Source: Paraburkholderia sp. Tr-20389
GTDB lineage: Bacteria > Pseudomonadota > Gammaproteobacteria > Burkholderiales > Burkholderiaceae
DNA length: 58,528 nucleotides
Direction of reading: 5' to 3'
Assembly (NCBI RefSeq): GCF_017104565.1
Contig: NZ_JAAGPD010000065.1
Span: 1-58,528, forward strand
In this document: positions 24,771 to 55,034 of the stretch, piece by piece
Numbering within the stretch: the first letter of the stretch is position 1
Layout of the letters: the number at the start of each line of letters is the position of its first letter
The notes under the pieces: model-generated
What the model saw: the letters and a program-made list of their open reading frames with translations, nothing else
Databases searched by the model: none
Told to the model about the DNA's origin: nothing
Made by a program: the position numbers and the translations under genes

Positions 24771-25706
24771 TTACGAATCGCGCTTGGGCAGCCGGTCGCC
24801 GTCAATGTGATAACCACCACGTCCCGCCCTCTCGACTGCAATATTGAACTGACGGGCCAATTGAGCATTCTTTTTGAAGTGCAAGGGTCTGTCGGCAGTT
24901 TGATCGAGGGCGGCGCACAAATGGCCGTGTATGGCCTCGATTTCTGAAGAAACGTCCGGCACCGTCTCGTAATAGTCGCTTGCCCCGAAATCCGCAAAAA
25001 TGTCGATGTATGCGGGGCCGTCCTCGGCACGCTTAATGTGCGTGTTTAGGAAAGCCGTCAGCCTGGTATTCGGCATCTCCGAGCACTTACGACGTATGTG
25101 TTCGCGCACCGAATTTTCCAAGATGACACGCGGGCCATCTGCGTGAGTCGACTCGAAAAGATAAGCGTTGACAAAAGCGGGCCCAAAGACCATGGGTGCT
25201 CCCGATTTTCCCAAAGTCGAACTGTCTTCGTGGTACAAAAGACCTTTAGCTACTCCGCCGCGGCTAAGAAAGCCGGCCATCAGCAGCTGCCGGCAGATCC
25301 GAAAAACTATATATACGAGAAGTCCAATCTCTCGAATATCCGGTTTAACTGAAATGACGACGCAATCAGAAAACGAAGTCATCCGGTCTTCAAAGTCATC
25401 GGCTGTCATATCAAGGCCGACTTCTTTCGCAAAGACATCAGCCCACGCATCATTACTCACCGACAGTGCATGGTATATTTTTCTAACCAAATCCGGTTTG
25501 CCGGCCGATTTAAAAATGATGTCTTTGAATCCGAGCACGTCGACAAAAGCGACGACCCTTTCTTCATACGCTGCGTGCCGAGGAGCGTCGGCGACGAATG
25601 CCGTTTCCTCCGACTGTGGCACCGTTGCCTGAGTCTCGACGACAGTAATGTCGGAAATATTAAGGCCCTCTGGTAGAGGGCCGCTTTTCTCAGCTGAGTC
25701 AGGCAA
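24771..25706 (-). CDS. Divergent class III nucleotide-cyclase-like protein (Pycsar PycC-like fold)
   Basis: A 311-residue protein whose middle matches the landmark order of class III cyclases: FVDVLGFKDI (D56, first metal Asp), FSDCVVIS (D114, second), SRGGVAKG (about 148-155), then VFGPAFVNAYLFES (G175-S186) and PRVILENSV. Pycsar defence cyclases belong to this fold. The residues aligned with the usual transition-state Asn and Arg are V179 and L183, so activity is uncertain. The start is TTG at 25706 behind GGGGGAG; no ATG occurs before residue 100. It follows the Panacea gene by 15 bp in the same frame and is probably expressed from its SOS-type promoter. A role as toxin or signal synthase is inference. 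Confidence 0.6.
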   Translation of the reverse strand: MPDSAEKSGPLPEGLNISDITVVETQATVPQSEETAFVADAPRHAAYEERVVAFVDVLGFKDIIFKSAGKPDLVRKIYHALSVSNDAWADVFAKEVGLDMTADDFEDRMTSFSDCVVISVKPDIREIGLLVYIVFRICRQLLMAGFLSRGGVAKGLLYHEDSSTLGKSGAPMVFGPAFVNAYLFESTHADGPRVILENSVREHIRRKCSEMPNTRLTAFLNTHIKRAEDGPAYIDIFADFGASDYYETVPDVSSEIEAIHGHLCAALDQTADRPLHFKKNAQLARQFNIAVERAGRGGYHIDGDRLPKRDS

Positions 25707-25721
25707 CGCTCCCCCGCGGGC

Positions 25722-26183
25722 TTAATGCTTAATCAGAGACTTGAAATAGGCTTCGATTTTGGCGTTGTCGAGTTCGTCGATTCCAACCGCCCACGCTTCA
25801 GCCCAAGGCCCGGTGTCGACGTGCGACATATTTACCAGCTGAGCTCCGGTGTAACCGTCGTACAGCTCTAGCACCTTGTCCACAATCTGCCCCGATTGCT
25901 CGTCCAAGGGGACTGGGACTTCATTGGTCGCACTCACCAGTGGGTGCGACGGCGGAATCGGGTTCGAGGAGAAAACTTTTAATTTGTGATAAACGCTCGG
26001 CAAAACCGGGCCGAACTTCCACGCGGCGAAATTTTCGTCAACCAGCGGGGTGTGTCGAAGTGCGAGATGCCATCCGTGGCAGAAATAAGCGAGCTTTTGT
26101 ACCGACAGATTGGTTAACAAACGGCCGCGCGCGCCCGATCGACGAATGATTTCGCCGGCGAGTTGCAGTGCTGAAACCGTCAT
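25722..26183 (-). CDS. Panacea domain protein (SocA/GepA family, DUF4065), probable antitoxin
   Basis: A 153-residue protein that is almost all Panacea domain: LSVQKLAYFCHGWHLALRHT (about 26-45), then AAWKFGPVLPSVYHKLK (about 53-69). Panacea proteins are antitoxins that neutralise unrelated toxins encoded next door; SocA and phage GepA are named members. The ATG at 26183 has a GGGGAA Shine-Dalgarno. The longer in-frame ORF reaching 26360 would run through the promoter and a palindrome, so is rejected. The cyclase-like gene follows after 15 bp. If this is a PanAT pair, that gene would be the toxin. A promoter with a LexA box lies about 46 bp upstream. Confidence 0.82.
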   Translation of the reverse strand: MTVSALQLAGEIIRRSGARGRLLTNLSVQKLAYFCHGWHLALRHTPLVDENFAAWKFGPVLPSVYHKLKVFSSNPIPPSHPLVSATNEVPVPLDEQSGQIVDKVLELYDGYTGAQLVNMSHVDTGPWAEAWAVGIDELDNAKIEAYFKSLIKH

Positions 26184-26228
26184 TTCAGTTCCCCAATTAA
26201 TGATCGTGCACCGCACGACCCAAATGAT

Positions 26229-26257
26229 ACTGTACATACATACAGTGCTTTTTTCAA
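26229..26257 (-). promoter_or_regulatory. Sigma-70 promoter overlapped by a LexA/SOS box
   Basis: On the minus strand: -35 TTGAAA (26257-26252), 17-bp spacer, -10 TACAGT (26234-26229). A perfect CTGT-N8-ACAG LexA consensus, CTGTACATACATACAG on the plus strand (26230-26245), covers the spacer end and the -10. It sits about 46 bp before the Panacea start codon, so the Panacea/cyclase-like operon should be derepressed by DNA damage. Confidence 0.75.
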
Positions 26258-26270
26258 GTTTTGGATGCCT

Positions 26271-26318
26271 ACCACGACGGGGATCCCACATTGGTTTACG
26301 TAGGATCCCCGTCGTGGT
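26271..26318. repeat. Perfect 16-bp inverted repeat
   Basis: Left arm ACCACGACGGGGATCC (26271-26286) and right arm GGATCCCCGTCGTGGT (26303-26318) are exact complements with a 16-nt loop. No T-tract follows on either strand, so it is not an ordinary terminator. It lies just upstream of the SOS-type promoter. Confidence 0.85.
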
Positions 26319-26494
26319 GGACGGAGGGTAGCAGGACATCACGAAAGAGTCAATAGCCAATGCCGTGCTGGCTCGTCCACGCCTACTTTCCCAAGAGCCG
26401 TCGCGGAGCCCGGGCCCGTGCTATGTTCTCGGCGGTGGCCGAAATGCTCAGGGCTTGACGGCAAACCCTAAAGCAGAATTTGCCCGAAAAGCTA

Positions 26495-26872
26495 ATGAAG
26501 AAAACCACAAAACTCTATCGACACTGGAACAACGGGGGACGGCTGCTATACGTTGGGGTCTCACACGACGCAATAAAGCGACTCGCGCAACACGAGGCTG
26601 ACAAAGAATGGCAGTCTGAGATCGCGCGGGTGACCATTGATACGTATCCAACCCGTGAAGCCGCAGAGCAGGCCGAGCGAGAGGCTGTTCGCAACGAAAA
26701 CCCTTTGCACAATCGAATATGCTTCCGGCCGAAGAATGAAATAGGGTTGCCGCAACCTCGAACCTCATATCGCGGTTTTTGGAAGAACTTATCTCAGGAA
26801 GGAAAGGCAGAGCATCTAGCTAAATTGCGGGGCTGTGGTCCAGTCCAGTCGAATTCCATTGGCAGAATGTAA
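26495..26872 (+). CDS. GIY-YIG nuclease superfamily protein
   Basis: A 125-residue protein with a single GIY-YIG-like domain: KLYRHWNNGGRLLYVGVSH (the Y...YVG pair replacing GIY-YIG), a basic helix IKRLAQHEADKEW with conserved Arg and His, then TREAAEQAEREAV with the catalytic-type Glu and ENPLHN with the terminal Asn. Small stand-alone proteins of this kind are frequent on phages and plasmids. ATG 26495 (MKKTTKLYRHW) is chosen because the domain starts at once. The C-terminal 45 residues are unassigned. It is followed 35 bp later by the DUF5710 gene. Target and partner are unknown. Confidence 0.8.
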   Translation: MKKTTKLYRHWNNGGRLLYVGVSHDAIKRLAQHEADKEWQSEIARVTIDTYPTREAAEQAEREAVRNENPLHNRICFRPKNEIGLPQPRTSYRGFWKNLSQEGKAEHLAKLRGCGPVQSNSIGRM

Positions 26873-26907: not shown

Positions 26908-27579
26908 GTGGAGACGGTAAATGAGTTGTCAGTACTCGCAAGGCCAGGCGACAGTCTCTTCATAACGGCGCTGGAGCCGCTTGGTTCAACCTGCGAAGAA
27001 ATCGAAGATGCCTTGCGCTCGATATTACGGCTGGGCGTTTCGTTGTATAGAGGTCGTCGCAAGCGTGACGAAAAGCTTTGGTTCGCGCCCGATGACTTGC
27101 GCGAAGCAGAGCAGCATCGCATACAAGTCCCACCGCGGCAATTGCCTCGCTTACTTCGTGGTATGGGTCAACTACGCGAAGATTGGACACTGCCTGACGG
27201 CAATCTTATCAATGCGATTCCTCCCAACTCAACACACGCGCGATTCGATTACATCGACGCAGCAATGCGGACCAAGTATGGCACCGGATGGCGCCGCATG
27301 TTCCCTTGGCCAGCATGGCGAGATATTCCGATAGCAGTTCCGTTTCACGAGAAGGATAAAGTAAAGGCGTTAGGAGCGCGTTGGTACGTATTCGGTCGCA
27401 GATGGTATGTGCCGAAGGGAATCGACCTAAACAAGTTTGACCGATGGTTGCCTGACATCGACAAGTGGGCGCAAAAGCCGGGAAGCATTCCTCCTGTGCT
27501 GCCATATTTCTACGTTCGAAAAACTCCGCCACCTGGATGGGGTGGCCGAAACGATCTAACCGAAGGCCTCGAGGAATGA
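26908..27579 (+). CDS. DUF5710-domain protein with resolvase-like N-terminal fragment
   Basis: A 223-residue protein starting at GTG. Residues about 140-185 (AVPFHEKDKVKALGARWYVF, RRWYVP, FDRWLP) match DUF5710, a short domain seen in plasmid and mobile-element proteins. The first 50 residues (SVLARPGDSLFITALEPLGS, then EEIEDALRSILRLGVSLY) recall the end of the serine-recombinase catalytic domain, where one expects RPGD...DRLGRS...L...G. The motif is altered to EPLGST and the catalytic serine region is absent, so it cannot be an active recombinase. It probably arose by fusion of fragments in mobile DNA. It sits just after the GIY-YIG gene in the same direction. Confidence 0.6.
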   Translation: METVNELSVLARPGDSLFITALEPLGSTCEEIEDALRSILRLGVSLYRGRRKRDEKLWFAPDDLREAEQHRIQVPPRQLPRLLRGMGQLREDWTLPDGNLINAIPPNSTHARFDYIDAAMRTKYGTGWRRMFPWPAWRDIPIAVPFHEKDKVKALGARWYVFGRRWYVPKGIDLNKFDRWLPDIDKWAQKPGSIPPVLPYFYVRKTPPPGWGGRNDLTEGLEE

Positions 27580-47134: not shown

Positions 47135-49876
47135 TCAGGAACTGGACCACATGGCGGAAGTGAAGACATACACTTTCGTCGGTCCCTTGCCGGGCAGTCG
47201 CTCCGTTCGCTGAGCCCAGCCGTTACTGGCGGGCTTGAGCCACCCTGCCTCTATCAGCGTTTTCGCGGCAAGCTTGGGGTCTTGACCCGGGCAGATTTCC
47301 CGCTTGAACACTTCAGGAAATAACAGGTACTCAACGCCTGACTCGGTCGAACGCCTGTAGCCTGCGCGGTTCAGCGTCGGGCGGTCACCGTTATCCTGCA
47401 GGTCGGTGAACCGGGCCTCTTCATGCGATTCGAAAAACGCCTTGACGGAAGACAACAGAGCGGCGTTTTCGATGTTGCCGGCACCGCCCCGCCCGCTCAT
47501 CCACTCGCGAAAGCACGTAGCCGATGCAGATTTGGCCTCGCCCGGATTCCACCCCGTGATCCCTCTTTCGGTCGCATGCTCGCCCGCAAGCGCAATGAGG
47601 GCGAAGCGCTGGCACACCCGATGTGCCTGGCCGCTCGCATCTGCTGGAAGATGTTCGTCGAGAAATCGCTCCGTTCCCCGCTTTAGCAGGTTGGCCATGC
47701 TGGCCGACTCACCCGTCAGTATCTTGAGATACTCGACGGCCGCGACACCGTAGCTGCGTGCGCAGCCCTCATTGACGACCGAGGAAAATTGCGCGCCGCC
47801 CGACGTCCCGTGCAGGTTTTCGAAAAGTCCCATTCCCTTGCCCGCATCGGCCGGCAACTCGACCAGCCGGACCTCCTGACCCGCCTTCGCACGCTTTCCT
47901 CCCGCCTGCATGTGTTGCGCAAGGCCGATTTCTCCCGCTGACAGGAAGAGTAGCCGCCAGGTCTGTCGGGGTCGCGCGGTCCCGCTGCGGCCAGCCCGCG
48001 CTTTTCCGCTGCCGTTGGCAAGCATGTAAGCGATTTCGCCTGCTTCACGTGGATCAACCTGCGCGAGCTCGTCAAGTACCAGCAACGTGTCGTTATGGAG
48101 TGCAGCGAGCGCTTCGAGCCCGTTCGATGTCGCGCGCCAGCGCTGCATATAGTCGGGACCGCCGAAAACGCTACATGCCGCGCGAAGCGCCGTCGTCTTT
48201 CCGGTCGACGATTCTCCTACCAGATTGATACCGCCGGATTCCTGACCAGAATGGACGAGTAGCATTCCCGCGAATGCCGCGGACACGGCGAGCACCAGCC
48301 GGGAGTTGCCGGTGCAATAGCGCGCCACGTCGTTTTTCCAGTCATCGATCGTTCCTGCTTGCGAGTAGGTGTGCAGCACCGCCTCCGATTGGAAGATCAC
48401 CCTTTCGGCTGAATCGCCGACCGTCCGGTCAGGGAAAACGAATGCACCGTTATGCCAGCCTGTGCGCGTGACACATCGGGCACGCGCCTTGGGCTTGGCT
48501 GTCGTGACGTACTCGGTCAACTTGTTACGCGCTCGCGCTCCGGGAGCGATATCAAGGCCCAGTCGGGCGAGTTCGCCTCTCATATCAGCGCCGTCTGAAC
48601 GAAGCATTTCCATGGGCATGCCCCATACGTGTGGGTGATCGTCTGCGTCTGCCCACTCGAGCAGGCGCCCCCAGTTTTCCGAAGCGCGGTCGCGCACGAG
48701 CGCGCTCACCCGCAGCGGTGAGCAGATCCAGCGCCGCTCGCCTTCGTCGTCCAGATAGAAGACGCCTTCCCCAGTCACGCTGAACCCTCGCGGCACGCAG
48801 CCATTGCTGGCCACGCCCGGGTGCTCGCCAGGCTGATTAACCGGTACCGACATGGGGGGCGCGGCACGTGCGATCTGACGGGATACCTCATCGGCGCCGA
48901 ACCGCACATGGATGTCGTTAAAGTCCGATTCGCCCTGCGCGCGCTCGCTGCCGAAATCAGGCAGTGCGAGCATGCCCCCAACGGCAACCGCAGCCTCGAC
49001 CGCCTTGGACTGCCCGTTACCCAGATCGGCGAGGATCACCAGATGCGCGTCGGGGTACGCACGCCCCATCGCCCGAGCGAGCGCGGGCAAGTTGCCGGCC
49101 GAAAGGGCAGCGACGGCCGGATCGCCAGTGCAAGCGTGCGCCGAGAGCATCGTTGCAACGCCCTCACCGATGAGAATCCGGTCGTTGCTGCGTGCAGGCT
49201 TTGCTGCAATCCACCCGCCCCCTGACTTCTCTCCTCGTGCGAGCGCACATTTACGGCCTGTCTCATCGATCATCTCGACGCTCGTAACGGCCCCATCGAT
49301 TTCCACCGGTGCAATCAGAATGCGACCTGTGAGCGCTTCCCCGCCTGCGCGGGGCGTGTATCCGATCACGGCCGACAGCGTTTCGAGCGGCAGTTCCCGG
49401 AGCTGCGCAATCGCCGCAACTCCCTTCCGAATCAGATACGGGTGGTCGCTGGTGGCCGGTGCCGACGTATCGATGATGCGGGCAGCGAGAATCGCGGCGC
49501 GCTTTCGTTCCATCAGTCGCCGATTAGCCTCATTGCGCGCGCGTGTCTCGCGCTCGTCATGGCGTTGCACGAGACCCGCGCTCGAATCGTGCGTCCGGAT
49601 GCCCGGACCCGAGTAGCCATGCTTCCTGGCAATCGCGATGAGAGTTTTAATGGTGATTCCGCCATCTGCGCGCAAAGAACGCCACGTATCACGCGCGTCC
49701 GCCTCGATGTAACGGTCACTGCGTCTACTCCAGGTATCGAACACTTTGAAGCCCTCCTCTCCAAGTGCGTGCTTGATGGCCGCGGCGATACGAAACCATG
49801 TGTCTCGATCGATGTCGGCCGGAATGAACGACAACACATCCCCGATTTGCTGAGAATTCCCCGCGACCGTGTTCAT
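47135..49876 (-). CDS. P4-alpha-like primase/helicase (PriCT_2-Toprim-DUF927)
   Basis: A 913-residue replication protein. Residues about 10-90 match PriCT_2 (PADIDRDTWFRIAAAIKHAL, DTWRSLRADGGITIKTLIAI). A Toprim-like domain about 230-340 has ILIGEGVATMLSAHA and LVILADLGNG. The DUF927 helicase domain about 360-650 has Walker A VGESSTGKTTAL (about 552-562) and Walker B LLVLDELAQ. Such proteins prime and unwind at the element's own origin, as alpha does in phage P4. It is the last gene of a chain of overlapping genes (4-bp overlap with 49873-50208). GTTAC arrays flank the module. Confidence 0.88.
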   Translation of the reverse strand: MNTVAGNSQQIGDVLSFIPADIDRDTWFRIAAAIKHALGEEGFKVFDTWSRRSDRYIEADARDTWRSLRADGGITIKTLIAIARKHGYSGPGIRTHDSSAGLVQRHDERETRARNEANRRLMERKRAAILAARIIDTSAPATSDHPYLIRKGVAAIAQLRELPLETLSAVIGYTPRAGGEALTGRILIAPVEIDGAVTSVEMIDETGRKCALARGEKSGGGWIAAKPARSNDRILIGEGVATMLSAHACTGDPAVAALSAGNLPALARAMGRAYPDAHLVILADLGNGQSKAVEAAVAVGGMLALPDFGSERAQGESDFNDIHVRFGADEVSRQIARAAPPMSVPVNQPGEHPGVASNGCVPRGFSVTGEGVFYLDDEGERRWICSPLRVSALVRDRASENWGRLLEWADADDHPHVWGMPMEMLRSDGADMRGELARLGLDIAPGARARNKLTEYVTTAKPKARARCVTRTGWHNGAFVFPDRTVGDSAERVIFQSEAVLHTYSQAGTIDDWKNDVARYCTGNSRLVLAVSAAFAGMLLVHSGQESGGINLVGESSTGKTTALRAACSVFGGPDYMQRWRATSNGLEALAALHNDTLLVLDELAQVDPREAGEIAYMLANGSGKARAGRSGTARPRQTWRLLFLSAGEIGLAQHMQAGGKRAKAGQEVRLVELPADAGKGMGLFENLHGTSGGAQFSSVVNEGCARSYGVAAVEYLKILTGESASMANLLKRGTERFLDEHLPADASGQAHRVCQRFALIALAGEHATERGITGWNPGEAKSASATCFREWMSGRGGAGNIENAALLSSVKAFFESHEEARFTDLQDNGDRPTLNRAGYRRSTESGVEYLLFPEVFKREICPGQDPKLAAKTLIEAGWLKPASNGWAQRTERLPGKGPTKVYVFTSAMWSSS

Positions 49877-50208
49877 TGCACGCCTCCATCACCGAGACCG
49901 GCACGCAAAAGCACTGCAATAAAGGCTGCCGAGTCGCCGATCACGCGCGTCGCTTCATCCGCAAGCGCGCAGATGCCTTCGAGATCGTCGCCGCGGTACA
50001 TCTTGGTCTCCAGGATGTCGCCCTTAGCGAACCCACCCGCCCGAGCGGCACTTAGCACCGCATCAAGAATGTGGCGTGAATGCTGCCGAATCTCGGGCTC
50101 GACATCCTCGGCCTGATACCAGATGAAGCCGGCTATAGCGACCAGATGGGCGGGACTGACGTAATGCCCGTCACCAAGGTACACACCGCGATCCTGGTTT
50201 CTTTTCAT
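49873..50208 (-). CDS. Hypothetical protein of the replication operon
   Basis: A 111-residue protein, not recognised. It begins MKRNQDRGVYLGDGHYVSPA and has helical segments (HSRHILDAVLSAARAGGFAK, AFIAVLLRAG). No TM or DNA-binding motif. Four-base overlaps at both ends with its neighbours mean it is translated with the primase, so an accessory role in replication or its control is likely; no more can be said. Confidence 0.7.
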   Translation of the reverse strand: MKRNQDRGVYLGDGHYVSPAHLVAIAGFIWYQAEDVEPEIRQHSRHILDAVLSAARAGGFAKGDILETKMYRGDDLEGICALADEATRVIGDSAAFIAVLLRAGLGDGGVQ

Positions 50209-50720
50209 GTGCCGCTCCTTGAGGAGTACTTATCGGCATCGACACAACAAGACGAACCTTTGTGCTCACCGACCACATCGAGAAGGCGTCGGCTCAACTT
50301 GTTGAGGCCATTTGTCGCATCAGCCATCTCTTCGAGATGCGTTTGGCTCGCTTGCGAAGCAAGTTCAGCGAAACCGTGCGTCAATTGGCCGCAGTTCATA
50401 GCCGCGACGATATCGTCAAGTAGCTTGCGCGCCGCCTTCGCAGCGTCGGCGGCTCGCGTCAACTGTTGCACGATCTCGTCTGCGATCTGACGAAGAGCCA
50501 ATTTCTCGGCCGCCCTCCCTGGCCCGGATTCGACTGCGCACCATTCAGTCGAATCCGAAGCAGCGTCGGCGACTTGCCTCGAAAGATCGATCAGCAGGCC
50601 GACCACTCCGTGGATGGGAATGGCGTCGTCCAGTCGGTCGACGGGTAGAGCCGACGAAAGCGTTTGGAGGACGTCGTGGATCTGCCACGCCTTCGCGGGA
50701 ATCTGCGGTTGACTAATCAT
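50205..50720 (-). CDS. Hypothetical helical protein of the replication operon
   Basis: A 171-residue protein, not recognised. Mostly helical and Ala-rich with a probable coiled segment (EIVQQLTRAADAAKAARKLL). ATG 50720 has a GGAGG Shine-Dalgarno inside the end of the preceding gene and overlaps it by 8 bp; its stop overlaps the next start by 4 bp. It belongs to the primase transcription unit; function unknown. Confidence 0.7.
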   Translation of the reverse strand: MISQPQIPAKAWQIHDVLQTLSSALPVDRLDDAIPIHGVVGLLIDLSRQVADAASDSTEWCAVESGPGRAAEKLALRQIADEIVQQLTRAADAAKAARKLLDDIVAAMNCGQLTHGFAELASQASQTHLEEMADATNGLNKLSRRLLDVVGEHKGSSCCVDADKYSSRSGT

Positions 50721-50883
50721 TCATTACCTCCGGACAGACAAGCTCAGCGAGACGACGAAGTGCGTCGCCGGCGATGTCGAGCGCGTCGGCATCCGTCGGC
50801 GCGGGTGCAGCGTCGCGTAACGCACGATTGACAATTTCGATTGGGGATTGCGTTTGCTCAGGACGAGCGAGGACTTGGCGCAT
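50713..50883 (-). CDS. Small hypothetical protein, first gene of the replication operon
   Basis: A 56-residue protein starting MRQVLARPEQTQSPIEIVNR. The start at 50883 is fixed by an ideal AAGGAGG seven bases before the ATG; the longer ORF to 51096 is an artefact. Acidic and helical, with one Cys, no known domain. It is likely the first gene after the operon promoter and may be regulatory. Confidence 0.65.
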   Translation of the reverse strand: MRQVLARPEQTQSPIEIVNRALRDAAPAPTDADALDIAGDALRRLAELVCPEVMND

Positions 50884-51247
50884 GGTGCGACCTCCTTGGG
50901 TTAATGAGCACCCGATCCCCAACGCCAATTGGGGTGGCCGGGCACATGGCAGAGTTGGCGTACCGGAACCCAAGGAAACCGGCGAGCGCAAGCGCTCCCC
51001 CACCAAGGCCCGACCATAGAAGCCGGCACGAGGTGTACGGACGTAAAAAAACCGCGCTGCGGCGGTTGTCCGCCTTGGGAAATTTCTGGACGCCAATCCA
51101 GGTTCGCTTTTGTATCAGCGACGAATTCAGTATACGTTCCCCCATATATGGAGGCAAGGCGGATATGCGATCTCGCATACGGATCCACAATAGGGAAGAG
51201 AGCAGGATTTCGCCCCCGCCCGAGGATTCGGGCGGGAGGATCAGAGG
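50884..51247. other. Promoter region of the replication operon
   Basis: 364 bp between the AlpA-type gene and the small ORF. It holds the terminator at 51050-51067, an AT-rich stretch near 51120-51160 that could hold a leftward promoter, and no supported gene. Confidence 0.5.
51050..51067 (-). terminator. Intrinsic terminator after the AlpA-type gene
   Basis: Stem AACCGC / GCGGTT with loop GCTGCG, followed on the minus strand by TTTTT. It isolates the HTH gene at 51248 from the replication operon. Confidence 0.7.
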
Positions 51248-51484
51248 TCACGCGGTGGCTGCAGCTTGGACTAGGGCCGCGCGGATCAGCCCGACGTTGA
51301 AACGCGTGGTCGACCCGAACTTGCGGGGAGGAGGAAGCCGTCCTTCCCTAACGCGCCGCCAGACGGTCGGCACCGAGCATCCAAAAAGCCCTGCGACAGT
51401 TCGAATCTGCACGTGAGCGGAGTCTGGCAACAGGTCGAACGAAGATAACTCCCTGGAGATAAATGAATCGGATCGTAAGGTCAC
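51248..51484 (-). CDS. AlpA-like helix-turn-helix regulator
   Basis: A 78-residue protein. The winged HTH core is QIRTVAGLFGCSVPTVWRRV, then REGRLPPPRKFGSTTRFNVG, the pattern of AlpA/MerR-like excisionase and phage regulators. It probably controls the integrase or the replication operon. The first 25 residues look unstructured, so a slightly later start is possible. It has its own terminator downstream. A second protein of the same type is at 52917. Confidence 0.85.
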   Translation of the reverse strand: MTLRSDSFISRELSSFDLLPDSAHVQIRTVAGLFGCSVPTVWRRVREGRLPPPRKFGSTTRFNVGLIRAALVQAAATA

Positions 51485-51661
51485 GATTGCTCCCGAAATA
51501 AAGCGACGCAGTTCGCCCGCTACTGCGTCTCACTGAACCAGCCTGAAACCGGGCAAGCTTCATTAGACGCGACCCGCACACGTGTGTCTTGGCACCAATT
51601 TGATGGAATTACGTGCCGGGACAGCATCGCGGCGGGTGTTCTGCGCCAGGCGCCGAGCGTA

Positions 51662-52558
51662 CTACCCGTCGCCGAATTCGTGTCTCGTCTTCTTCTTTTG
51701 CTTTTTGGCGCGCACCTGCCCCGCGAGCACCCTGCTGGTCTGGACGGTCATCAGCGAATTGGCCATGGGCCGGACCGTTCGGCGTACCCGCTCAGCCGGA
51801 GACGAAAGTTCAATCTCATTGGGGAACAGTGCGGTCGCGATCTCGTTGTCGGTGAATTTCGTTCGTCGCAATACCGAAATGATCTGAAGATCGATGTATG
51901 CCAGCACCTTCATCTCGTGCCAGCGTATGAAGTGGTTTCGATCGAACCCACGTCGGGGCTTTTTCATTCCGACGCGGCTTTGGAATTCCTTCACGAAAGA
52001 AGCGATGTGTTTCAACAGATCGTCCAGCGGCACGGTCAAGTCGACGATGATGTGAGCGACCCCCATATCGCTGGAAAATCCATGGATGCTCTCGATAAGG
52101 ATCCTGCACGGCTGATCCGCGAGTCGATGAAGTTGTTCATCCTCCGGCCCCTCGAAGCGCTCATCCGAGGAGAAAAGCCGCGCGACCACCTCGTGAGGGA
52201 TACCCTCCGCCTCAGCGGCCTCGCGCGTCAGGTGCGAAATGCCGGCAACGTCTCTCACTGTAAGCTCGGCGACCGGTTGCTCCACCCCAGGGTAGATATC
52301 AAAGGTGTCATCGCTTGCGGCCAAAAGCAGCGGTGCCTGAATCCGCCTCAGGCATCTGCGAAACAGAACGATGTGAAGCGCCTTGAGCGTTTCGCTATCC
52401 GCGCGCAACACCGTCCCGTCTACTAACAGGTTTGCAGCCCTGAGATCCGAATTCCGCTCATTGAGATTCAACGCCCAGTCTTCAAGGGTCAACCGTTCGG
52501 CTCCCTCATATTTTGTGATATCGAAGAATGTGGGCAGGCGGGGACGACGATTTTTCAT
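51662..52558 (-). CDS. DUF6387-like protein
   Basis: A 298-residue protein. It begins MKNRRPRLPTFFDITKYEGA and continues LTLEDWALNLNERNSDL, which recalls DUF6387 proteins often carried on integrative elements beside the integrase. The body is helical without a recognised catalytic motif; the C-terminus is highly basic (RAKKQKKKTRHE), suggesting nucleic-acid contact. ATG 52558 has GGAG six bases before it; the longer ORF to 52690 is rejected. Family call is from memory of its N-terminal pattern and is moderate. Confidence 0.6.
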   Translation of the reverse strand: MKNRRPRLPTFFDITKYEGAERLTLEDWALNLNERNSDLRAANLLVDGTVLRADSETLKALHIVLFRRCLRRIQAPLLLAASDDTFDIYPGVEQPVAELTVRDVAGISHLTREAAEAEGIPHEVVARLFSSDERFEGPEDEQLHRLADQPCRILIESIHGFSSDMGVAHIIVDLTVPLDDLLKHIASFVKEFQSRVGMKKPRRGFDRNHFIRWHEMKVLAYIDLQIISVLRRTKFTDNEIATALFPNEIELSSPAERVRRTVRPMANSLMTVQTSRVLAGQVRAKKQKKKTRHEFGDG

Positions 52559-52916
52559 TGGACACTCCGTGGTGAAAAAATCGAATCGTCGGCCGTAACA
52601 GCTACCCCCGCTCCACTCTTTAAGCGTCAGAAGGGCGCGCTTGCTCGGGATGCGACCGGGTCGAACAAGCGTCTCCGAAAGCCTCCTCAATAGAATCGAA
52701 GTCGGCCAGCCAGGTGCCAGTCGACATGACTAGCCGGCGTACCCGCGACCTCGGGCGCGGTTACAGCAAACGCGGTTACGAAAACCCGGTTACCTGTAAC
52801 GCCTTGCCTGGCAAGCGATTGCGGCAGGCGTTACAGCCGTTACCGCTGTAACCGCGTTTTTTTGTATGTGGCAGGTGAGGGTGCGACGCAGCGAACGACC
52901 GACGGCAGAACAGATA
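52559..52916. other. Gap holding iteron array B
   Basis: 358 bp without a gene. GTTAC/GTAAC array B occupies 52760-52852, followed by a T-run. Confidence 0.65.
52760..52852. repeat. GTTAC/GTAAC iteron array B (candidate replication region)
   Basis: Seven copies in 93 bp: GTTAC at 52760, 52775, 52789, 52830 and 52839; GTAAC at 52796 and 52848. Many sit in a longer GCGGTTAC context, also seen in array A. It has the same number and orientation mix (5+2) as array A, 5.7 kb away on the other side of the replication genes. Confidence 0.7.
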
Positions 52917-53129
52917 TCAATGGTCGGCAGTTCGGTATTCCGCCGGTGATGCAAGAAAAGCTTCTATGTCGGCAATACGCCAGCCCACCGATCGAGGGCC
53001 GATCGCAACGGGCGCAGGGAAGGTTCCTTTGCTAATCCTCGCGTAGATGGTTGAACGGGACAGTCCCGTCAATTCCTCGACCTCGGGACGACGGAGTAGA
53101 GCAAGACCGGGATCCTTGAGCCTATTCAT
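52917..53129 (-). CDS. AlpA family phage/excision regulator
   Basis: A 70-residue protein, the usual AlpA length. LLRRPEVEELTGLSRSTIYA, then RISKGTFPAPVAIGPRSVGW and RIADIEAFL are the standard AlpA signature. In P4-like elements these small HTH proteins activate or direct excision by the integrase. It lies 240 bp downstream of the integrase gene in the same direction. ATG 53129 (MNRLKDPG) is chosen because the domain starts at once. Confidence 0.92.
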   Translation of the reverse strand: MNRLKDPGLALLRRPEVEELTGLSRSTIYARISKGTFPAPVAIGPRSVGWRIADIEAFLASPAEYRTADH

Positions 53130-53329
53130 GTGCGCTCCCGGCTGGGGCACCGACAGGTAGAGTGCTGGGCATGTTGGTCACCTGGTTTGAGGAAGTGGTC
53201 CTGTGCCCGCTTGAATCTGCGCACCTGATTCAGATTGCGCCGGGGCGACGGCCATTACAGACCAGACACGTCCATGTGTCGCGGCAGACAAATGCTGACG
53301 GTTTTATGCCGGGGTGACTTTGGTCGGTA

Positions 53330-53350
53330 GATGCCCCCGAACGGGGCATC
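53330..53350 (-). terminator. Hairpin downstream of the integrase gene
   Basis: GATGCCCC-CGAAC-GGGGCATC: 8-bp perfect stem, 20 bp after the integrase stop. No T-run follows, so termination is uncertain; it could be a regulatory or recombination-related structure. Confidence 0.4.
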
Positions 53351-53369
53351 AGTGCGCAGCCAGAGCCGG

Positions 53370-54587
53370 TTATGGCATCTCGGTTGGAAGCGGTGGCGAG
53401 AGATGAGCGCCGGTCTTGAGTTCGTCGAGGTAATCGGCCCAGCGCTGCATCATTATTGTTCTGTCGTCGATGAACTTCGTCCGGTTATATGCTGTTCCGA
53501 GCGCATCGGGCACCTTGTGAGCGAGTTGATGTTCAATGACTTCGCTGGGAAACCTCAACCGCTCATGAAGGATCGTCCGCGCCATTGCGCGGAAGCCGTG
53601 TCCCGTGATCTCCGTCTTCGTGTCGAACCCCATCCTCCTCAGCGCTGCATTGATCGCTGCACCGCTCATCGGCTTTCTCACATCGCGTCCGGGGAAGACG
53701 TATTGGCGATGTCCCGTCAACCAGTGAAGTTCGCGCAGGATCGCGACGGCCTGTCGTGACAGCGGAACGAGGTGGTCGATTCGTGTTTTCGTCACTGAGT
53801 AGCGCCACTGCGCCTTGTCGAGATCGATGTCGACCCATCGTGCGGTACGAAGCTCTCCCGGCCGGACGAACATAAGCGGCGCGAGCTTGAGAGCGCATTG
53901 AACGACGAATGTCCCCTTGAACCCGTCGAGCGCACGCAGCAAAGCGGCGACGTCTTCCGGCTCGGTCATCGACGCGAAATGCGTATGACGGGCGGGTGGC
54001 AGGGCACCGCGCAGATCGGCGCTCGGATCACGTTCGGCGCGCCCCGTCGCCACTGCGTAACGAAATACCTGCCCGCAGTTCTGGTGAACACGATGTGCGG
54101 TGTCCAGCGCACCGCGGGCCTCGACTCTTCGCAGCACCGCGAGCAGCTCGACAGGACGGATCTCCGCGATGGGCCGAGCGCCGAGCCACGGGAACACATC
54201 GTTCTCGAGCCGGGCGATAATTTTCTCTGAGTGCGATGACGCCCACGAAGGGGCATGTCGCGCGTACCACTCGCGAGCGACGGCCTCGAAACTGTTTGCT
54301 GCTCGCTCGATCCTCGACGCCTTCTGGATCTTGCGTTCGAGCCCTGGGTCGATTCCGTTCGCGAGAAGCCGACGGGCGTCATCCCGGCGCAACCGCGCCT
54401 GCTTCGCGCTCACGGTCGGATACACGCCGAGCGCGAGACGCTTTTCCTTGCCGGCGAAACGATACTTGAACCGCCAGTATTTCCCCCCACTTGGGGTCAC
54501 TTCCAGATACATACCGGCACCGTCAGTGAGCCGGTAGGGCTTGTCGCGCGGGCGCGCATGGCGGATTTGCAGATCGGTCAAGGGCAT
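53370..54587 (-). CDS. P4-type tyrosine recombinase/integrase
   Basis: A 405-residue integrase. The N-terminal DUF4102 arm-binding domain is seen in PYRLTDGAGMYLEVTPSGGK, FKYRFAGKEKRLALGVYP. Catalytic residues: Arg in RPGELRTARW, HGFR (HxxR) in EITGHGFRAMART, His in IEHQLAHK, and Tyr in LGTAYNRTKF. All are intact, so it should be active. ATG 54587 (MPLTDLQIRHARP) has GAGGAG upstream. It lies 371 bp from the 3' end of tRNA-Ala, the usual layout for integration into a tRNA gene. Confidence 0.95.
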   Translation of the reverse strand: MPLTDLQIRHARPRDKPYRLTDGAGMYLEVTPSGGKYWRFKYRFAGKEKRLALGVYPTVSAKQARLRRDDARRLLANGIDPGLERKIQKASRIERAANSFEAVAREWYARHAPSWASSHSEKIIARLENDVFPWLGARPIAEIRPVELLAVLRRVEARGALDTAHRVHQNCGQVFRYAVATGRAERDPSADLRGALPPARHTHFASMTEPEDVAALLRALDGFKGTFVVQCALKLAPLMFVRPGELRTARWVDIDLDKAQWRYSVTKTRIDHLVPLSRQAVAILRELHWLTGHRQYVFPGRDVRKPMSGAAINAALRRMGFDTKTEITGHGFRAMARTILHERLRFPSEVIEHQLAHKVPDALGTAYNRTKFIDDRTIMMQRWADYLDELKTGAHLSPPLPTEMP

Positions 54588-54958
54588 CTGGACTCCTCGG
54601 GGCATCAACGATGGAAATCGTGCAGAACCCCTGACGGTGCCTGTTTTGGCAATCGTCAGTCAATAGGATTTGTCCGAACGCGCTTCATCACCGCGCAGCT
54701 AATGGTCGAAGGGAATGCCGAAACAGCATCGGTTCAGCCACAGGGCGAGCCTTGCCGGCTCGCAGCCCCCAATGAGGCAAGCCGCGACGACTTACTGGGG
54801 GCATCGGGGGCTGGCAAACGAATAATGCCCCGCCGACTGCCCCCGCCTTGACCGGCATCTCACCGGATCTGAATGAACGAGCCAAGAAACAAAAAACCCC
54901 GCGAGCCTTGCTGGCTGCGGGGTTCAAGGAATTTCTAGGACGTGTCTGGTATGCGGAA
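54588..54958. other. Attachment-side region between integrase and tRNA
   Basis: 371 bp with integrase-arm-like GGGGGCA motifs (minus- and plus-strand copies between about 54795 and 54846), the tRNA terminator and no supported gene. Confidence 0.55.
54895..54924 (-). terminator. Intrinsic terminator after tRNA-Ala
   Basis: AACCCCGC pairs with GCGGGGTT, with an inner AGCC/GGCT extension and a TTGC loop; on the minus strand TTTTTTGTTTC follows. It is 35 bp downstream of the tRNA 3' end. Confidence 0.8.

Positions 54959-55034
<76 letters not shown>

What the first reader, a model, noticed from the sequence alone, without database searches (positions are those of the whole stretch)
24771..26257. 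SOS-controlled Panacea plus cyclase-like gene pair: candidate new toxin-antitoxin or anti-phage system
A Panacea-domain gene is followed 15 bp later by a protein with the class III nucleotide-cyclase landmark order (D56, D114, RGG, VFG...ES). Panacea proteins are known promiscuous antitoxins whose partner is normally the next gene; class III cyclase relatives are known as Pycsar defence signal synthases. I know of no described pair of this kind. The two genes sit in an AT-rich island beside a type III restriction system. Pairing, frame and promoter are seen; the toxin or signalling role is inference.
Basis: partly seen in the sequence, partly recalled or inferred. Interest (0 to 1): 0.85.

Follow-up and report, generated by a model that had tools for sequence, protein, structure and literature searches.

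The report
DNA-damage-controlled Panacea–cyclase-fold gene pair
Two neighbouring bacterial genes with a DNA-damage (SOS) control site in front look like an antidote and a toxin whose toxin has the shape of enzymes that make cyclic nucleotides; one similar pairing has been tested before, so this looks like a new branch of a known kind rather than a wholly new system.

The parts
25722..26183 (-). Panacea-domain antitoxin-like gene (PanA-like), 153 aa, first gene of the operon
   Evidence: Pfam PF13274 E 1e-18 above gathering score; NCBIfam SocA model 99.9 bits, below its cut-off of 190
24771..25706 (-). cyclase-fold partner (candidate PanT toxin), 311 aa, TTG start behind GGGGGAG
26230..26245 (.). 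LexA (SOS) box, CTGTATGTATGTACAG read on the minus strand
   Evidence: exact CTGT-N8-ACAG; same motif before lexA, recA, uvrA of this genome; exact box before the pair in L002 and L003, one mismatch in L020
26229..26257 (-). sigma-70-like promoter TTGAAA-N17-TACAGT overlapped by the LexA box
   Evidence: consensus scan, 3 sites found against 1.6 expected; equivalent TTGATA-N17-TACAGT read by eye in L002
26271..26318 (-). 19-nt-arm hairpin between an upstream promoter-like site and the LexA promoter; possible leader or terminator
   Evidence: 95% complementary arms; same arrangement in L002; a 24-base sequence overlapping it (26308-26331) occurs once in the genome at up to 3 mismatches
26325..26353 (-). 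possible second promoter TTGACT-N17-TACCCT (TTGACA-N17-TACCCT in L002), read by eye
   Evidence: not listed by the consensus scan
25664..25682 (-). hairpin GGCCCTC-N5-GAGGGCC in the first codons of the cyclase-fold gene
   Evidence: 4 terminator-like sites found, 3.3 expected; stem identical in L002 (4923-4941) while the loop differs; synonymous divergence lower over 37 N-terminal codons (pS 0.50) than over the gene (0.82)

Best explanation
A mobile, LexA-repressed Panacea toxin-antitoxin operon (PanAT type). The upstream gene makes a Panacea antitoxin; the downstream gene makes a toxin with a class III nucleotide-cyclase fold that keeps the two metal-binding aspartates. Shown here: gene pair, fold, conserved adjacency, common ancestry of the paired proteins, LexA-type box over the promoter. 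Inferred: in healthy cells LexA holds transcription low and Panacea binds and blocks the partner. DNA damage (including prophage induction or phage attack) derepresses both genes; if the antitoxin is lost or titrated, the free toxin uses ATP/GTP or another NTP at its two-metal site and slows transcription and translation, as reported for the prophage phi52237 cyclase-like PanT. Because the usual Asn/Arg pair for cyclisation is missing, the product may not be an ordinary 3',5'-cyclic nucleotide.
For: Panacea domain; antitoxin-first order, gap 15 bp here and 17, 3, 2 and 13 bp in L002, L003, L020 and L056, meeting the in silico criteria of Kurata et al. (at most 100 nt, two or more species, no longer operon). 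Five distinct loci with no other shared gene in different surroundings: phage capsid gene (L002), groES/groEL (L003), viral contig (L020), a genome of another family of the order (L056). Paired proteins are one clade, 100/99, 0 of 500 label shuffles as clustered. Fold. Metal Asp invariant 47/47. LexA box exact in 3 of 5 pairs; chance of an exact box in 150 bp about 0.002. Same box before lexA, recA, uvrA in this genome. Precedent for a cyclase-like PanT that is toxic, neutralised and bound by its Panacea: PMC8832971.
Against: No toxicity, neutralisation or binding was measured. 42 of 47 family rows have no Panacea gene in the stretch fetched (about 1.5 kb each side for whole-genome loci, 4-5 kb for most others), so the fold is not tied to an antitoxin. 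The L020 box has one mismatch, and 1.42 such matches are expected by chance in that locus (152 of 200 shuffles have one), so it is weak evidence; L056 has no exact or one-mismatch box. In the own genome CTGT-N8-ACAGTA has 17 matches against 12 for the reversed control pattern, only a modest excess. hhalign probabilities against the own-genome cyclases are 56% and 78%. Kinship with the phi52237 toxin was not tested directly; tblastn of the window protein (E<=0.01 and E<=10) and of L056's (E<=1) in the phage collection found no relative (whether that record is held is not known), and no phi52237 protein is among the 50 BFVD matches listed of 178.
Confidence: 0.7

Rival explanations
1. The partner is a pseudo-cyclase: it binds a nucleotide or a protein through the two-metal site but does not make a cyclic product, and harms or regulates the cell by binding.
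For: Class III transition-state Asn/Arg positions are not conserved (V179: N in 6 of 47; L183: R in 5 of 47, mapped); one Foldseek match (rank 41, E 1e-3) is a class III cyclase-like ATP-binding protein (6yii).
Against: D56 and D114 are 47/47, R149 46/47, E185 and K279 43/47, which speaks for a conserved active site.
Confidence: 0.25
2. Panacea acts as a SocA-like protease adaptor (type VI): it hands the partner to ClpXP, so the operon is a conditional degradation switch rather than a stable inhibitory complex.
For: NCBIfam SocA model matches at E 1e-28, though below its cut-off; SocA is the ClpXP adaptor for SocB (PMC5812544 passages).
Against: Kurata et al. report stable complexes for five PanAT pairs, including the cyclase-like one (PMC8832971 passages; the number tried was not seen).
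Confidence: 0.15
3. Pycsar-like or other signalling defence: the partner makes a cyclic nucleotide that opens a separate effector, and Panacea tunes it.
For: Cyclase fold; a type III restriction system is next door; two unpaired relatives lie beside genes of defence type (L004 between genes that look like hsdS and hsdM, named by eye; L014 beside dsr1).
Against: No PADLOC match for either gene of the pair; no cyclic-nucleotide-binding or TIR domain in six neighbours by Pfam; no third gene shared by any two of the five loci in the stretches held.
Confidence: 0.08
4. The adjacency is accidental hitch-hiking of two island genes.
For: Both lie in a low-GC region; most relatives of each gene found here occur without the other.
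Against: Five distinct loci with the same order and 2-17 bp gaps, paired clade 100/99; of 9 genomes with a phrog_21097 match among 399 of the order, the two strong ones (2e-104, 1e-49) are exactly the two with Panacea.
Confidence: 0.02

Closest known systems
PanAT toxin-antitoxin systems (Panacea/DUF4065), in particular the Burkholderia prophage phi52237 pair (Kurata et al. 2022, PMC8832971)
   Same: Panacea antitoxin, two-gene locus, partner resembling adenylate/guanylate cyclase, found on mobile elements
   Different: Here a LexA-type box overlaps the promoter and stands before 3 of 5 pairs; the words SOS and LexA do not occur in that paper's main text. No sequence link to the phi52237 toxin appeared in the searches run; direct comparison was left out. 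Its Dataset S1 (88 toxin clusters) was not seen and may hold this family.
Class III nucleotide cyclases (Pfam PF00211)
   Same: Fold over residues about 42-240, both metal Asp
   Different: No Pfam match of the window protein; catalytic Asn/Arg pair not conserved; extra C-terminal helices (253-293) and a low-confidence N-terminal tail (1-37) in the model
Pycsar pyrimidine cyclases (PycC)
   Same: Class III motifs and two metal Asp (PMC11224242 passages)
   Different: No PADLOC match and no effector domain in the neighbours by Pfam; a Panacea gene instead
SocAB (type VI)
   Same: SocA is a Panacea-type protein
   Different: Window Panacea is below the NCBIfam cut-off for SocA; SocB is described as a sliding-clamp binder, not a cyclase-fold protein
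LexA-controlled toxin-antitoxin modules (tisB/istR, higBA)
   Same: SOS repressor controls a TA module (passages)
   Different: Other toxin and antitoxin families

Membership tests
PanAT toxin-antitoxin (Panacea) | Panacea (PF13274) domain in one gene | tested here: met
   E 1e-18, 68.7 bits over cut-off 25.7
[quoted passage not shown]
   Gaps 2-17 bp in five loci; no other gene shared by any two of them in the stretches held
PanAT toxin-antitoxin (Panacea) | Partner toxic alone, neutralised and bound by its Panacea | not testable with these tools
   Needs expression and pull-down
Class III nucleotide cyclase | Class III catalytic fold | tested here: met
Class III nucleotide cyclase | Two metal-binding Asp | tested here: met
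   D56, D114 in 47 of 47, aligned to the Asp of own-genome cyclases
Class III nucleotide cyclase | Transition-state Asn and Arg (role recalled; invariant N139 and R143 in the 4 own-genome cyclases) | tested here: not met
   V179 and L183 in the window; N in 6 of 47 and R in 5 of 47
Class III nucleotide cyclase | Above Pfam PF00211 cut-off | tested here: not met
   No match for the window protein at E<=1; 1 of 18 family members matches at E 0.0036
Pycsar | PycC match and adjacent effector (cyclic-nucleotide receptor) | tested here: not met
   PADLOC none for the pair at E<=0.1; Pfam shows no such domain in six neighbours
SocA equivalog (type VI) | NCBIfam NF047745 cut-off | tested here: not met
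   99.9 bits against 190
SOS (LexA) regulon | LexA box over the promoter, same motif as known SOS genes of the genome | tested here: met
   26230-26245 over the -10; same motif before lexA, recA, uvrA
SOS (LexA) regulon | Induced by DNA damage, LexA binds | not testable with these tools
   Needs reporter or gel shift

The most novel reading that the evidence does not exclude
A family of two-metal, class III-fold enzymes that has lost the usual cyclisation residues makes a different nucleotide product that stops transcription; one clade was captured by a Panacea antitoxin and put under LexA, giving mobile elements a DNA-damage-triggered suicide or exit switch, while the unpaired members, some of them beside defence genes, do related work without an antitoxin.
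Probability: 0.25. Interest if true: 0.78.

Novelty: new variant of a known kind. Interest (0 to 1): 0.52.

Why it matters
Panacea antitoxins swap toxins freely, and the one cyclase-like toxin characterised in the paper seen has no known reaction. A second, SOS-linked lineage with five comparable loci, an invariant metal site and an unusual active site makes that reaction testable, and links a Panacea system to the DNA-damage response, which would explain when such modules fire. It also points to a broad, unnamed protein family (phrog_21097/phrog_23933) found on plasmids and viral contigs and in two loci beside defence genes.

Tried and rejected
Pfam, NCBIfam and PADLOC gave nothing for the second gene; PDB sequence search gave only chance dUTPase matches at E about 1. 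tblastn in the phage collection: none at E 0.01, two chance Vibrio phage matches at E 10, none for L056's protein at E 1. BFVD fold search: two matches at E<=1e-3, a 671-aa phage protein named as a transmembrane sensor and a 406-aa Harvfovirus response regulator; a guanylate-cyclase-domain protein of Faunusvirus at 8e-3. The search for related loci with the single window protein in viral contigs found nothing. Pycsar and accidental adjacency considered and put low (see rivals). att repeats of 14 bp or more around tRNA-Ala: none in the window, so the island ends are not fixed. Rfam: no match in 17-30 kb. A search for a paper on 6yii found none. Papers were searched for Panacea with LexA/SOS, DUF4065 with toxin and Panacea/PanA with cyclase: no paper describing LexA control of a Panacea module was seen in listings and passages; supplementary files were not viewable.

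Full report
What is there. On the minus strand, a Panacea gene (25722-26183, 153 aa) is followed after 15 bp by a 311-aa gene (24771-25706, TTG start behind GGGGGAG). The Panacea domain scores 68.7 bits against a Pfam cut-off of 25.7. The second protein matches nothing in Pfam, NCBIfam or PADLOC at E<=0.1 but matches phrog_21097 (E 1e-104) and phrog_23933 (E 8e-22), both of unknown function. Both genes are under purifying selection against L002.

Active site. Over 47 family rows (duplicates and ORFs under 200 aa dropped) D56 and D114 are 47/47, S113, R149 and G150 46/47, E185 and K279 43/47. The positions that align with the canonical Asn and Arg carry N in 6 and R in 5 of 47; the five paired proteins (window, L002, L003, L020, L056) carry V, V, I, V, N and L, V, Q, T, Q. 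The family thus keeps a two-metal site but not the usual cyclisation pair. That these residues matter for catalysis is recalled knowledge.

Conserved pairing. The same two genes, in the same order, occur in P. phenoliruptrix (L002, 17 bp gap, beside a phage capsid gene), Herminiimonas (L003, 3 bp, beside groES/groEL), a viral contig (L020, 2 bp) and a genome of another family of the order (L056, 13 bp; Panacea 32%, partner 38% identical to the window's). No other gene is shared by any two of the five loci in the stretches compared (20, 10.8, 10.8, 6.0 and 3.4 kb). In 399 genomes of the order, phrog_21097 matched 9; the two strong ones (2e-104 and 1e-49) are the two with Panacea, the seven weak ones (2e-9 to 7e-4) have none in the fetched stretch. 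Samples of 197 relatives, 369 genomes of the class and 398 of the phylum gave 8, 6 and 10 genomes with a match, the window's own counted each time; of these only the window's genome and G012 (the same sequence as L002) were paired. In a 47-row tree the five paired proteins are one clade, support 100/99, and none of 500 label shuffles is as clustered (the bootstrap had not fully settled). The simplest reading is that the adjacency was gained once and kept.

Regulation. CTGTATGTATGTACAG (26230-26245) overlaps the -10 of a TTGAAA-N17-TACAGT promoter. Exact CTGT-N8-ACAG boxes also precede the pair in L002 and L003, with different inner bases. L020 has a one-mismatch site 103 bp before the ATG, but 1.42 such sites are expected by chance in that locus; L056 has no exact or one-mismatch site. 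A chance exact match in 150 bp has probability about 0.002. In the window's genome the same box with TA behind it occurs 17 times against 12 for the reversed control, a modest excess, but the places include lexA (two boxes), recA and uvrA, checked by Pfam, and three loci with ImuA-like ORFs (L076, L077, L082; named by recall, Pfam gave no match for the one scanned, L077), one of them followed by a Y-family polymerase gene (L076). Of 19 other Panacea loci inspected, 3 (L045, L046, L054) also have an exact box within 300 bp upstream, two of them before small proteins with hydrophobic stretches (L061, L063 and L065 were not inspected for the box, L037 and L038 have none). LexA control of Panacea modules may therefore not be confined to this pair.

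What is known. Kurata et al. 2022 (PMC8832971; passages, section 5 part 1 and section 9 read) showed that Panacea neutralises many toxins; one validated, co-purifying pair from Burkholderia prophage phi52237 has a toxin with HHpred similarity to adenylate/guanylate cyclase that mainly inhibits transcription and raises ppGpp through RelA. Whether the window's partner is homologous to that toxin was not compared directly; no link appeared. In the companion network paper (PMC10440598; one passage) the word cyclase occurs once, in spelling out the GAF domain. Pycsar cyclases (PMC11224242; passages) share class III motifs and metal Asp, but no Pycsar partner was found here. LexA-controlled toxin-antitoxin modules of other families are known (tisB and higB: passages in PMC5812544 and PMC6120978). 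A Serratia phage Panacea pair with a MazF-like partner is described in PMC7556043 (passages) without a LexA box before it. No paper found describes LexA control of a Panacea module; the library is open-access only and supplements were not readable.

Verdict. A conserved, mobile Panacea operon with a LexA-type box and a cyclase-fold partner, most likely a toxin-antitoxin module (0.7). Enzymatic product unknown; a pseudo-enzyme is the strongest rival. The genus is probably Paraburkholderia (inference: genome G012, marked same genus, carries the L002 sequence).

Noticed in passing
L045 (-22), L046 (-102), L054 (-36 relative to the Panacea start): Three of 19 other Panacea loci inspected also have an exact CTGT-N8-ACAG box upstream; in L046 and L054 the next ORF is a small protein with hydrophobic stretches. 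LexA control may be shared by further Panacea modules of the order.
   Followed up: partly
window 25664-25682 and L002 4923-4941: A perfect 7-bp-stem hairpin sits in the first codons of the cyclase-fold gene; its stem is identical in L002 while the loop differs, and in L002 it reads as a hairpin plus eight T (intrinsic terminator) for the antisense direction.
   Followed up: partly
window 26271-26353: A promoter-like TTGACT-N17-TACCCT (by eye) followed by a long hairpin lies upstream of the LexA promoter, conserved in L002: a possible second promoter with a leader, or a small RNA.
   Followed up: partly
window 47135-55034: Tyrosine integrase (53370-54608), a DUF927/PriCT_2/Toprim primase-like gene (47135-49876) and DUF6387 next to tRNA-Ala (54959-55034) look like an integrative element; no att repeat of 14 bp or more was found in the window.
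   Followed up: partly
L004 4968-5672; L014 3995-4846: Unpaired cyclase-fold relatives lie between genes that look like type I restriction S and M genes (L004, by eye) and beside a gene annotated dsr1, an anti-phage sirtuin (L014), hinting at defence roles for the wider family.
   Followed up: no
window 26480-26872 and 26908-27579: Divergent small genes beyond the pair: a GIY-YIG-like protein (E 7e-4, below cut-off) and a DUF5710 protein (E 6e-17).
   Followed up: no
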